Below, in pieces: positions 1-19,889 of a DNA stretch of 19,889 nucleotides (position 1 is its first letter; each line of letters opens with the position of its first letter). Origin of the DNA: Candidatus Pygmaiobacter gallistercoris (GTDB lineage: Bacteria; Bacillota; Clostridia; Oscillospirales; Ruminococcaceae). A program made the position numbers and the translations under genes. The stretch lies in NCBI GenBank assembly GCA_019113125.1, contig DXIA01000091.1:1-19889 (forward strand), in the 5' to 3' direction. Below the pieces are notes generated by a model that saw only the letters and a list, made by a program, of their open reading frames with translations, was not told the DNA's origin and did not search any database.

Positions 1-114
1 CCCCTCAAGCCTTGGTGGCTTGGGGGGCCGCTCTGAGTGCTTTCTACGCCAAAAGTCTACGGCAGAACTAAACTTCCCGCAGGGAAGTTGCGTTTTCTTA
101 TTCTGCCACACCTT
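1..114 (-). repeat. Left-edge copy of a dispersed hairpin repeat (truncated by the window edge)
   Basis: Positions 1-114 are the reverse complement of the right-edge element. Positions 1-68 match 19771-19838 with one difference (T at position 5), and 92-114 match 19744-19766 with one difference. Between these blocks this copy carries about 23 bases (69-91) that replace 4 bases in the other copy; 71-89 form a perfect 8-bp hairpin, AACTTCCC-GCA-GGGAAGTT. The window starts inside the main hairpin: 17-27 (GGCTTGGGGGG) can pair with 1-11 across the loop TTGGT, the T at 5 giving a G-U pair. The element lies just downstream of the leftward cold-shock gene and reads in the same direction as that gene. 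The repeat itself is directly visible; its family is unknown to me. Confidence 0.9.
71..89. repeat. Extra small hairpin inside the left repeat copy
   Basis: AACTTCCC (71-78), loop GCA, GGGAAGTT (82-89) is a perfect 8-bp inverted repeat. The right repeat copy has only AACG at the same place (19767-19770), so this is an insertion or deletion difference between two copies of one element, and it shows the copies are separate genomic loci. Confidence 0.8.
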
Positions 115-144
115 GTGGAGAGACCTTTTTGTTTGGCGTGTCGC

Positions 145-17644: not shown

Positions 17645-18757
17645 ATGACAAAGATTGATATTTTCTCGGGCTTTCTTGGCGCGGGGAAAACGACCCTGAT
17701 CAAGAAACTGATCCGGGAGGTCTTCACCGGCGAGAAACTGGTATTGATTGAGAACGAGTTCGGTGAGATCGGGGTTGACGGGGGCTTTCTCAAAGAGTCC
17801 GGCATCCAGATCACCGAGATGAATTCCGGCTGCATCTGCTGCAGCCTGGTGGGTGATTTCGGCCGTGCACTCGAACAGGTGCTTGACCAGTACCACCCCG
17901 ACCGGATCCTCATCGAGCCCTCCGGCGTCGGCAAGCTGTCGGACGTCATCCGGGCGGTGCAGCGGGTCGCGGATCACGCTCCGATTGCCCTCAACAGCTT
18001 TACCACCGTCGCCGATGCGACCAAGTGCCGGGTGTATATCAAGAACTTCGGCGAGTTCTATGACGATCAGGTCAGCCACGCCAACACCATCATCCTCAGC
18101 CGCACCGGCGGGATGGACGAGGCGAAACTCGAAAAGGCGGTCGCGCTGCTGCGGGAGAAGAACGCCACCGCGACCATCATCACCACCCCGTGGGAGGAGC
18201 TGTCCGGTGACCAGATCCTCGCCGCGATGGAGCGCCGCACCACCCTCGATCAGGAGCTGAAACTGCTGGCGGAGGAGACCGCGGCGGAGCATCATCACGA
18301 CGATGACGAGTGCGATGACCCCGAGTGCAGCTGCCATGATCACGATCATGAGCATGAGCATGATCACGAGCATGAGCATCACCATCATCATGATGACGGC
18401 GAGTGCGACGATCCCGAGTGCAGCTGCCACCATCACCATGACCACGAGGGACATGAGCATCACCATCATCACCACGCTGACGAGGTTTTCACCAGCTGGG
18501 GCATGGAGACGCCTCGCAAGTACACCGAGGCGGAGCTGCGGTTCGCGCTGGAGGCCCTCACCGATGCGGTCAGCTACAGTGTGGTGCTGCGGGCCAAGGG
18601 CATTCTGCCCGCGTCCGACGGCGAGTGGCTGCACTTTGACTATGTCCCGGGCGAGATCGATATCCGCCGGGGTCCCGCCGATGTGACCGGCCGCCTCTGC
18701 GTGATCGGCTCCAAGCTGGATGAGGAGAACCTCACCGAGCTGTTCCATCTGGCCTGA
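17645..18757 (+). CDS. CobW/G3E-family GTPase with His/Cys-rich metal-binding insert
   Basis: A 370-residue G3E P-loop protein, a family that delivers metals such as zinc, cobalt or nickel to target proteins. Walker A is GFLGAGKTT (9-17); the metal motif CxCC is C63-I-C65-C66; IEPSGVG with E91 fits the switch/Walker B region. The guanine-specificity NKxD motif is replaced by LSRTGG, as I recall from related clostridial members. Residues about 216-280 are a metal-binding insert with 27 His and two copies of CDDPECSCH about 30 residues apart, 6 Cys in all. The CobW C-terminal domain (RFALEALTDAVSYSVVLRAKGILP ... GEWLHFDYVPGEIDI) closes the protein. The ribosome-binding site is weak: AAGGAAAG lies 14 nt from the ATG. 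It is followed 14 bp later by a second GTPase gene. Substrate metal is unproven. Confidence 0.95.
   Translation: MTKIDIFSGFLGAGKTTLIKKLIREVFTGEKLVLIENEFGEIGVDGGFLKESGIQITEMNSGCICCSLVGDFGRALEQVLDQYHPDRILIEPSGVGKLSDVIRAVQRVADHAPIALNSFTTVADATKCRVYIKNFGEFYDDQVSHANTIILSRTGGMDEAKLEKAVALLREKNATATIITTPWEELSGDQILAAMERRTTLDQELKLLAEETAAEHHHDDDECDDPECSCHDHDHEHEHDHEHEHHHHHDDGECDDPECSCHHHHDHEGHEHHHHHHADEVFTSWGMETPRKYTEAELRFALEALTDAVSYSVVLRAKGILPASDGEWLHFDYVPGEIDIRRGPADVTGRLCVIGSKLDEENLTELFHLA
18291..18480 (+). repeat. His/Asp/Cys codon-repeat region with duplicated CDDPECSC cassette
   Basis: Low-complexity coding repeat built of CAT/CAC, GAC/GAT and GAG codons. Two copies of a cassette GAGTGCGA(T/C)GA(C/T)CCCGAGTGCAGCTGCCA lie 90 bp apart, starting near 18309 and 18399; each codes for CDDPECSCH and is followed by alternating His/Glu/Asp. 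It looks like an in-frame tandem duplication that grew a metal-binding loop. Confidence 0.85.
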
Positions 18758-18771
18758 GGGGAGGGGAACGG

Positions 18772-19713
18772 ATGATCCCGCTTTATCTGTTCACCGGCTT
18801 TCTCGATGCCGGCAAGACCAGCTTTATCCAGGAGACGATGGCGGATCCTCGCTTTTCCAGCGGGGAGAAGACCCTGCTGCTCCTCTGCGAAGAGGGAGAG
18901 GAGGAGTACGATCCCAAGAAATTTGCCGGCGGAGAGAATGTCACCATCGTGACCATCTCGGATCAGGCGGAGATGACCGCCCAGTATCTGCGCAACCTCA
19001 CCGCGAAGTACCACAGTGACCGGGTGGTGCTGGAGTACAACGGAATGTGGCCGATGTCGGTGCTCATCACCAACATGCCCCGCAACTGGCAGCTCTACCA
19101 GCACATCATGGTTGCAGATGCCGGCAGTTTTGCCCTCTACAACGCGAATATGCGCTCGCTGGTGGTCGAGCGGCTGGCCAGCGCCGAGATGGTGCTCTTC
19201 AACCGCTGCAGCCCCGACACCGATAAGGAGGAGCTGCATAAGATTGTCCGCTCCACCAACCGGCGCACCGATATCATCTATGAATATCCCGACGGCAATG
19301 TCGAATACGACGAGATCGAGGATCCATTGCCCTTTGACATCGAGGCGGATCCGGTCGAGATTGCGCCGGACGACTTTGGGCTGTGGTATATGGACATCAC
19401 CGACGATCCTCAAAAGTATGCCGGCAAGCGGGTGAAGTTCCTCGCTCAGGTCGCGCAGTCGCCCCGGGTGCCGAAGGGGGCGTTCGCTGCGGGCCGGTTT
19501 GTGATGACCTGCTGTGTGGAGGACATCACCTTTGTCGGTCTGGTCTGCAAGTATGAGAAGGCGGCGAGCCTCAAGAGCCGGGACTGGGTCACCGTCACCG
19601 CCCGCATCAAGCTGGAGTATGCGGCCATCTACGGCGGCAAGGGACCGGTGTTGGTGGCGGAGTCGATCGAACCGGCACAAAAGCCGGAGCAGGAGGTCGT
19701 CTATTTCAGCTGA
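18772..19713 (+). CDS. CobW-like GTPase fused to a YcgQ/TIGR03943-type C-terminal domain
   Basis: A 313-residue protein in two parts. The N-terminal 200 residues are a CobW/G3E-like P-loop domain: Walker A GFLDAGKTS (9-17), EYNGMW where the sibling has IEPSG, and NRCSPDTD in place of NKxD; the CxCC metal motif is absent (LLLCEEGEEEYD there instead). From about residue 203 to the end, WYMDITDDPQKYAGKRVKFL, RFVMTCCVEDITFVGLV (C247-C248) and SRDWVTVTARI match the conserved soluble domain of YcgQ (TIGR03943), the partner of the YcgR permease and CobW proteins in metal-stress operons; here the membrane part is absent. The ATG has GGGGAGGGG just upstream and lies 14 bp after the previous gene, so both GTPases are co-expressed and perhaps work as a pair (inference). 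Confidence 0.9.
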   Translation: MIPLYLFTGFLDAGKTSFIQETMADPRFSSGEKTLLLLCEEGEEEYDPKKFAGGENVTIVTISDQAEMTAQYLRNLTAKYHSDRVVLEYNGMWPMSVLITNMPRNWQLYQHIMVADAGSFALYNANMRSLVVERLASAEMVLFNRCSPDTDKEELHKIVRSTNRRTDIIYEYPDGNVEYDEIEDPLPFDIEADPVEIAPDDFGLWYMDITDDPQKYAGKRVKFLAQVAQSPRVPKGAFAAGRFVMTCCVEDITFVGLVCKYEKAASLKSRDWVTVTARIKLEYAAIYGGKGPVLVAESIEPAQKPEQEVVYFS

Positions 19714-19743
19714 CCGAAAAAACAACAAAAAAAGGATGCCCTA

Positions 19744-19889
19744 AAGGTGTGGCAGGATAAGAAAACAACGGTTCTGCCGTAGACTTTTGGCGTAGAAAGC
19801 ACTCAGAGCGGCCCCCCAAGCCACCAAGGCTTGGGGGGCCGCTCTTCACACTTTCTCCATCCAAAATTCTGAGGCAGAACTGCAAAGCA
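19744..19889 (+). repeat. Right-edge copy of the dispersed hairpin repeat
   Basis: This copy starts about 30 bp after the last stop codon, in the same orientation as that gene, and matches the left-edge copy in inverted orientation with two base differences and one indel in the shared part. Starting at 19771 it is a long imperfect palindrome (listed separately). The block 19744-19766 (AAGGTGTGGCAGGATAAG...) precedes the hairpin and is shared by both copies, so the element is larger than the hairpin. The window ends before its right boundary. Confidence 0.9.
19771..19880 (+). other. 110-nt long imperfect hairpin of the repeat (possible structured RNA or MITE)
   Basis: Paired blocks from outside in: GTTCTGCC/GGCAGAAC (19771-19778 with 19873-19880), AGA/TCT, TTTTGG/CCAAAA, GAAAG/CTTTC, and an 18-bp perfect stem AGAGCGGCCCCCCAAGCC (19805-19822) with 19828-19845 around the loop ACCAA. 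Between them are a 2x2 loop, a 1x1 mismatch, a 4x5 loop and a 5x5 loop. About 40 base pairs in all. Regular internal loops flanked by conserved stems are more like an RNA or mobile-element fold than a simple terminator; there is no T run after it. Confidence 0.8.

What the first reader, a model, noticed from the sequence alone, without database searches (positions are those of the whole stretch)
19744..19889. A long hairpin repeat closes both ends of the window, in opposite orientation
The first 114 and last 146 bases are inverted copies of one element (68 of 69 and 22 of 23 bases shared in two blocks). Both copies sit directly downstream of a gene (csp, CobW-YcgQ fusion) and read in that gene's direction. 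The right copy folds into about 40 base pairs with regular internal loops and an 18-bp terminal stem. No transposase is near. It may be a high-copy intergenic element (REP/MITE-like) or a 3'-end structured RNA. The sequence ending in this repeat at both sides is what one would expect if assembly broke at a multi-copy repeat.
Basis: partly seen in the sequence, partly recalled or inferred. Interest (0 to 1): 0.75.

Follow-up and report, generated by a model that had tools for sequence, protein, structure and literature searches.

The report
Mobile hairpin element in terminator loops
The repeat at both ends of this contig is half of a small mobile element that sits in the loops of gene-end hairpins and carries a conserved folded motif related to hairpins found in many members of one order of gut bacteria, for which I found no earlier description.

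Summary
The repeat is real but is only part of an element. The window is a whole contig of a fragmented genome bin. The complete element (279-404 bp) has an end stem (P1), a long hairpin (P2, the reported stretch) and a second hairpin (P3), predicted to form a three-way junction. The bin holds 37 left and 44 right ends; 48 of 396 contig termini lie inside a copy, so assembly did break here. Copies sit in loops of intrinsic terminators with a 2-bp duplication (15 of 20 unselected full copies); relatives have plain terminators at tested sites. Orientation relative to genes is not fixed. Optional small hairpins occupy five slots.

A covariance model of P3 built only from genomes outside the genus still finds P3 in five of six genus copies tried (104-113 bits). 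It matches 126 of 394 genomes of the order, but only one genome outside the order in a 299-genome phylum sample. P3 loops are better conserved than its covarying stems. P2 resembles P3 on the opposite strand, a REPIN-like inverted pair. No Rfam family reaches its threshold over the element, and no mobilising enzyme was found. Best reading: a non-autonomous mobile element whose folded single strand is under selection; what moves it is unknown.

The parts
19745..19889 (+). right copy of the element, left half only (left end, P2, first 3 bases of P3); cut by the contig end
19745..19766 (+). left end AGGTGTGGCAGGATAAGAAAAC (5' arm of P1)
19771..19880 (+). hairpin P2 (the reported long hairpin)
19767..19886 (-). 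P2 read on the minus strand matches the P3 covariance models (R1 32.1 bits, R2 28.8 bits)
19727..19741 (.). A tract and first arm (GGATGCCC) of the interrupted terminator of the 18772-19713 gene; its partner arm is not on this contig and I did not find it among the ends read
19743..19744 (.). AA next to the element, candidate copy of the 2-bp duplication
1..113 (-). left copy of the element, left half only; cut by the contig end inside P2
92..113 (-). left end of this copy
69..91 (-). slot-1 optional hairpin module (GCAACTTCCCTGCGGGAAGTTTA on minus)
1..68 (-). truncated P2 of the left copy
114..115 (.). duplicated dinucleotide (CA on minus), also present beside the right end on contig C171
117..130 (.). 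arm and T tract (GGAGAGACCTTTTT) of the interrupted csp terminator; the partner arm lies at the end of contig C171
145..357 (-). csp, cold-shock protein gene, upstream of the left copy
18772..19713 (+). gene upstream of the right copy: cobW domain and DUF1980 C-terminal domain

Best explanation
Both window ends are halves of copies of a non-autonomous mobile element that inserts into the loop of intrinsic, mostly two-way, transcription terminators and duplicates 2 bp there. SHOWN by computation: many copies with precise ends, 2-bp duplications, terminator-loop sites, plain terminators at the same sites in relatives, a predicted three-way junction with P1 next to the terminator stem, compensatory changes in P1 and P3 (few in P2), relatives of hairpin P3 through the order with loops more conserved than stems, and similarity of P2 to P3 on the opposite strand. 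INFERRED: the hairpin acts as a folded single strand (RNA, or single-stranded DNA) recognised by a factor supplied in trans; the inverted P2/P3 pair gives each strand one sense hairpin; a self-closing element in a terminator loop leaves the two arms able to pair, so insertion is cheap for the host. UNKNOWN: the enzyme.
For: 74 ends, control 0; 37 left and 44 right ends. T tract beyond 63 of 78 G000 ends and 13 of 17 G002 ends against 5.2% of random positions; flanking arms complementary in 19 full copies (-17.0 against -11.6 kcal/mol for mismatched pairs, 0 of 20,000 permutations). Flanking dinucleotide identical in 15 of 20 unselected full copies (8.0 expected, 68 of 100,000 permutations as high) and 14 of 15 sites chosen by matching arms. 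Plain hairpins at the csp site in G001, G002 and G005 and at five more sites in G002. Nested insertion. Fold z -16.2. Covariation. Loops more conserved than stems. R2, built without genus sequences, finds genus P3 at 104-113 bits in 5 of 6 copies tried. P2 on minus. G-U over A-C on the motif-sense strand.
Against: No mobilising enzyme found. 5 of 20 full copies lack a matching dinucleotide and several full copies have non-matching arms; chimeric joins could explain some but this is not shown. RNAalifold's own consensus omitted P1 and gave a covariation term near zero. A crude test found a T or A tract at the stem edge in only 7 of 29 order-wide loci, and the G494/G475 relatives are not obviously in terminators, so the terminator target is supported for this genus and the Subdoligranulum copy, and for a few other loci by eye, not for the whole order. 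P2 reached the P3 model in 4 of 7 sources (one partial) and 3 of 26 loci. The wobble excess rests on few pairs in the genus and is partly a fitting bias. A5-A7 are fitted to the structure.
Confidence: 0.6

Rival explanations
1. A conventional MITE: moved by the DDE transposase of an ordinary insertion sequence through the sequence of its terminal repeats; the internal hairpins are by-products.
For: Inverted ends, short duplications and empty sites; related MITE-like repeats in G494 and G475 have fixed GGGCG ends beside YTA, as an IS-derived MITE would.
Against: End sequences change with compensation while P3 loops stay; every left or right end read in G000 led into the same element type, and no longer copy with a gene was seen (bin 91.6% complete); the duplicated dinucleotide varies.
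Confidence: 0.25
2. A REPIN-type element moved by a RAYT tyrosine transposase as single-stranded DNA.
For: Inverted pair of related hairpins; wobble excess on the sense strand.
Against: No Y1_Tnp match in G000 or G002, the bins with most copies; matches in 4 of 13 genomes searched (G005, G432, G565, G653). A 2-bp duplication is not expected for that chemistry (recalled).
Confidence: 0.08
3. A host 3'-end RNA or long terminator that spread by recombination and is not mobile.
For: Conserved fold, location at gene ends.
Against: Precise ends, duplications, plain terminators in relatives, nested insertions.
Confidence: 0.06
4. An assembly artefact.
For: Both copies are at contig ends of a fragmented bin.
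Against: Internal full copies in G000 and G002 and one in a record listed as circular of Subdoligranulum variabile; control pattern 0.
Confidence: 0.01

Closest known systems
REPINs and REP elements (PMC3116915, PMC3733652; passages seen)
   Same: Small non-autonomous extragenic repeats made of two inverted palindromic units predicted to fold in single-stranded DNA or RNA; some REP families lie inside palindromes, and CGTC REPs lack a dedicated transposase.
   Different: REP units are 20-40 bp with GTAG or CGTC tags; here each hairpin is about 110-120 nt with conserved internal loops, plus a P1 end stem, a 2-bp duplication and terminator loops as targets; no tyrosine transposase in the two bins with most copies.
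BOX elements of Streptococcus pneumoniae (PMC3049150; passages seen)
   Same: Composite, modular, folded intergenic repeats with a variable number of inner hairpin modules; ends pair with each other.
   Different: No relatedness tested; here five slots for optional small hairpins, a terminator-loop target and a different host group.
IS1272 / IS1182 family (PMC5678879; abstract and two sections seen)
   Same: Stem-loops of differing sequence are the target.
   Different: IS1272 replaces the stem-loop and leaves no duplication; here the arms are kept and 2 bp are duplicated; no transposase gene inside.
Insertion sequences that enter REP palindromes, such as IS1397, ISKpn1, IS621 (PMC1525189; passages seen)
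   Same: Insertion into extragenic palindromes.
   Different: Full insertion sequences with a repeated-sequence target, not terminators of differing sequence.
Group IIC introns (recalled, no paper read)
   Same: Associated with terminator hairpins.
   Different: Said to insert beside the stem-loop rather than in the loop; no intron model was matched by the elements in the Rfam scans.

Membership tests
MITE | short element without a gene, inverted ends | tested here: met
   279-404 bp, inverted ends
MITE | target-site duplication | tested here: met
   15 of 20 full copies, 8.0 expected; 14 of 15 arm-matched sites
MITE | ends shared with an autonomous insertion sequence in the same genome | tested here: not met
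   the ends read in G000 led into the element itself, none into a longer element with a gene; bin incomplete
REPIN | two inverted homologous palindromic units | tested here: met
   P2 minus strand against the P3 models; 3 of 26 further loci, so not seen in most loci
REPIN | cognate RAYT tyrosine transposase in the genome | tested here: not met
   no PF01797 match in G000 or G002; both bins incomplete
REPIN | GTAG-type tag beside the palindrome | not tested
   no search made for a tag
BOX element | boxA-boxB-boxC sequence modules | not tested
   no comparison with BOX sequences made
IS1272-type stem-loop replacement | target stem-loop removed, no duplication | tested here: not met
   both arms kept and dinucleotide duplicated
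IS110-type bridge-RNA element | DEDD recombinase and guide loops matching target and donor | not tested
   considered only because end variants track the dinucleotide
Rfam families | match at the curated score over the element | tested here: not met
   window, four bin loci and nine outside loci scanned; the matches reaching gathering (a tRNA and a purine riboswitch) lie outside the elements; weak Gut-1 (29.6 bits, gathering 50) over slot-1 modules and MIR2646 (29.6, gathering 245) over one outside hairpin

The most novel reading that the evidence does not exclude
An order-wide class of mobile elements built around a folded strand: a conserved, loop-rich hairpin, carried once on each strand, is what an unknown trans-acting recombinase or reverse transcriptase recognises, while the ends need only pair and co-vary with the chosen target dinucleotide. 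By entering terminator loops as a self-closing fold, the genus-level branch becomes part of the terminator itself, a nearly cost-free niche.
Probability: 0.22. Interest if true: 0.9.

Novelty: new variant of a known kind. Interest (0 to 1): 0.72.

Why it matters
Hairpins matching the P3 model occur in 126 of 394 sampled genomes of the order, 19 of which (G000 included) reached the limit of nine scored matches, and no Rfam family reaches its threshold over the copies scanned. So an abundant structured motif of gut bacteria seems to be unannotated. It offers a concrete case of selection on the fold of a mobile element, a clear terminator-loop target with filled and empty sites, and a practical cause of broken assemblies in these genomes.

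Tried and rejected
Chance or two-copy repeat: rejected. Fixed orientation relative to genes: rejected; a first script counted spurious open frames and was replaced. Tyrosine-transposase link: not supported. Small modules as free repeats: none seen outside elements in 187,821 bases of the bin, about 12% of it. Phages: no blastn match; a strict core pattern found nothing in viral contigs. Other family genomes gave only single matches with 1-2 mismatches, a level the reversed control also shows, apart from an exact match in G116 near a contig end. R1 scores of 35-50 bits alone are not specific, since antisense strands of the same hairpins reach 52 bits; hence loop identity, phylum samples and a model without genus sequences. 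A pseudoknot between GGGTGC and GCACCC in P3 was dropped because GGATGC variants would break it (by eye). One strand for the whole element: not supported, P1 13 G-U to 18 A-C, P2 9 to 24, P3 37 to 4 on plus.

Rows dropped: the degenerate end at C71:13410 is left out of the end counts. The 15 sites were chosen by matching arms; C45/C65 among them is the miss. Six full copies with non-matching arms (C185, C155, C113, C179, C40, C182) were not in that set; one search repeats the dinucleotide count on the 20 of 21 full copies with both flanks (C182 is not in that list). In one search, 78 G000 and 17 G002 ends had full flank and 19 copies had 30 bases on both sides. In one search the association table used 33 left and 38 right ends (CCGG-type ends and ends without flank left out). 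A2 used 15 of the 25 sequences of A1.

Search for earlier description: ten full-text searches. In the listings and the passages I saw, no paper describes this element. Most subscription journals are not held, so this is weak evidence of absence. PMC9208149 and PMC10969869 were seen as passages only and added little.

Full report
OBSERVATION. The window is the whole of contig C37 in a bin of 1,602,688 bases in 198 contigs, 91.6% complete. Bases 1-68 and 19771-19838 are inverted copies (99%), and 92-114 matches 19744-19766. The right copy folds far better than shuffles, the truncated left copy less so. Rfam gives no match in the window at gathering scores.

THE FULL ELEMENT. The bin holds many copies, and a short outer repeat recurs inverted some 250 bases further on. 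Reading copies with flanks gave: left end AGGTGTGGCAGRATAAGAAAAC, hairpin P2 (the reported stretch), hairpin P3, right end GTTTTCTTATYCTGCCACACCT. The end pattern, with up to 3 mismatches, has 74 matches in the bin and none for its reversed control. I counted 37 left and 44 right ends; 48 of 396 contig termini lie inside a copy, 21 entered from a left and 27 from a right end. So the contig did break at a multi-copy repeat, and both window copies showing left ends is no rule. The 21 full copies found by pattern (12 in G000, 9 in G002) measure 279-404 bp.

MODULES. Length differences come from small hairpins present or absent at five slots. The window's left copy has a slot-1 module (69-91); the right copy has none there. 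None of six module sequences was seen outside elements in 187,821 bases of the bin.

TARGET. Outside both ends lie an A tract and a G+C-rich arm facing the element: it sits in the loop of a terminator. A T tract (at least 5 T of 6, reading outward) lies beyond 63 of 78 ends in G000 and 13 of 17 in G002, against 5.2% of random G000 positions. In 19 full copies with both flanks the arms are complementary (-17.0 against -11.6 kcal/mol; 0 of 20,000 permutations), although several copies have poorly matching arms. Some arms match other contig ends better, which hints at chimeric joins. The flanking dinucleotide is the same on both sides in 15 of 20 full copies (8.0 expected, 68 of 100,000 permutations as high) and in 14 of 15 sites chosen by matching arms, 5 within one contig and 10 across contigs. 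At the csp site the missing half is the end of contig C171, while G001, G002 and G005 have plain hairpins there (for example GGTCTCTCC-TGAC-GGAGAGACC in G001); G002 also has plain hairpins at five more of the 15 sites. A variant element is nested inside another at C72 and C95.

ORIENTATION. By a simple coding score, 26 of 37 left ends (10 away, 1 uncalled) and 29 of 43 right ends (11 away, 3 with too little flank) in G000 face the 3' end of the nearest gene, mostly 14-60 bases off. The element has no fixed orientation.

FOLD AND COVARIATION IN THE GENUS. A full copy with its terminator arms folds into one three-way junction with P1 next to the terminator stem (-204.1 kcal/mol, z -16.2; opposite strand -189.5, z -18.3). 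For the structure I named, over 25 sequences 23 pairs have changes on both sides (shuffles 14.2 +/- 1.7; slid 4-8): nine in P1, six in P3, five in the inner P3 helix, three in P2; further pair types did not exceed shuffles (138 of 500 as high). RNAalifold's own consensus left out P1, had 8 such pairs among 75 and a covariation term near zero. The ends vary in sequence while mostly keeping their pairing (AGGTGTGGCAG, AGGCGCGGTGACG, AGCCGGCGTGACG).

SPREAD. By DNA the element is narrow: 3 of 7 genomes of the genus, plus one contig end in G116, which from contig length and number is bin E04__bin110 and may be misbinned or horizontal. Nine of the ten named matches belong to bins called uncultured Pygmaiobacter. 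A model of P3 (R1) matched 11 of 295 order genomes including G000 (E up to 0.01; nine others at 0.001 or better) and only G000 among 299 genomes of the phylum sample (E up to 0.001). R2, built from 12 matches outside the genus, matched 126 of 394 order genomes and 65 of 169 genera (E up to 1e-4), and in the phylum sample 4 of 299: G000, two of the same order and one outside it (G935, 4.6e-6). R2 gives 104-113 bits to P3 of five G000/G002 copies it was not trained on; a sixth, the diverged C182 copy, was not matched. R2 derives from matches first found with R1, so it is independent in training sequences, not in discovery.

LOOPS AND STRAND. In the 12 outside matches 21-29 of 36 unpaired positions but only 21-37 of 57 paired positions are identical to the genus, while 82-96% of pairs form; antisense control rows show 12-13 of 36 unpaired. 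On the 12, 36 of 37 pairs change on both sides (shuffles 25.6); on 31 sequences all 37 do, 388 cells against 114 in shuffles. These alignments are fitted to the structure. G-U exceeds A-C 65 to 10, in 26 of 28 untied rows (the fit favours G-U). On the unfitted genus alignment, over variable pairs, G-U: A-C on plus is 37:4 for P3, 9:24 for P2 (so 24:9 on P2's own minus strand) and 13:18 for P1; a few pairs carry most of these counts. P2 matches the P3 models on the minus strand: window 32.1 bits against 15.4 on plus (R1) and 28.8 (R2), 4 of 7 sources showed it, one partly. In Subdoligranulum variabile it scores 48.8 bits (E 3e-9), and 3 of 26 order-wide loci show it. I read the element as two related hairpins in inverted orientation; the loci where P2 does not match may carry a diverged or different second hairpin.

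A NAMED CARRIER. blastn against plasmid records gave one record, OY725846.1 of S. variabile, listed as circular. It holds the same architecture at 123103-123383 in a terminator loop with AA on both sides; a second, weaker P3 match (36.6 bits) lies near 347.8 kb.

MECHANISM. Established by comparison: insertion (precise ends, duplication, empty sites), target and structure in the genus. Inferred: the folded hairpin is what is recognised, since its loops outlast ends and stems; two inverted copies give each strand one sense hairpin, whichever of two convergent genes is transcribed or whichever strand is single during replication; a self-closing element leaves the terminator arms able to pair. 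Unknown: the enzyme. No tyrosine transposase was found in G000 or G002. Order-wide, the terminator target is not general: a crude test found a T or A tract at the stem edge in 7 of 29 loci, and the G494/G475 relatives lie beside YTA instead.

COMPARISON. REPINs are inverted hairpin pairs (PMC3116915, passages); some REP families lie in palindromes (PMC3733652, passages); BOX is modular (PMC3049150, passages); IS1272 targets stem-loops but replaces them without duplication (PMC5678879, abstract and two sections). None has all the features seen here, so I rate it a new variant of a known kind.

LIMITS. Fragmented bins; rough E-values; gene calls by a simple score; no expression data; all 12 genome searches used.

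Noticed in passing
G000, 33 left and 38 right ends: End variants (positions 8 and 12) track the duplicated dinucleotide: left G8/A12 with CA in 10 of 14 against 0 of 19 others (p 1.1e-5); right T8/G12 with CA in 7 of 11 against 2 of 27 (p 7e-4). Unexplained; subfamily descent could contribute.
   Followed up: partly
G494 and G475: 62 and 18 matches to a GGGCGTATCTGAAAAC left end; the copies read are mostly 134-160 bp MITE-like repeats beside YTA, several carrying the same hairpin core.
   Followed up: partly
G000:C72 6136-6170 and C95 5663-5698: A CCGG-type element is inserted inside the P3 stem of another element.
   Followed up: partly
G000 contigs C113, C179, C185, C155, C182: Full copies whose two flanking arms do not match each other; C179's right arm matches C48's left arm, which suggests chimeric joins in the bin.
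   Followed up: partly
window 18290-18475: A 93-bp tandem pair encoding a His/Asp-rich stretch inside a CobW-family protein.
   Followed up: no
window 18772-19713: Protein with a weak cobW domain match and a DUF1980 C-terminal domain, next to a second CobW gene.
   Followed up: no
L174 (G115:C18), 1501-1626 and 1797-2074: A P3-type hairpin lies 170 bases from a T-box-like leader on the other strand (88 bits, gathering 93).
   Followed up: no
G000:C71 13410: A lone degenerate end beside an ordinary hairpin, perhaps a remnant of a copy.
   Followed up: no
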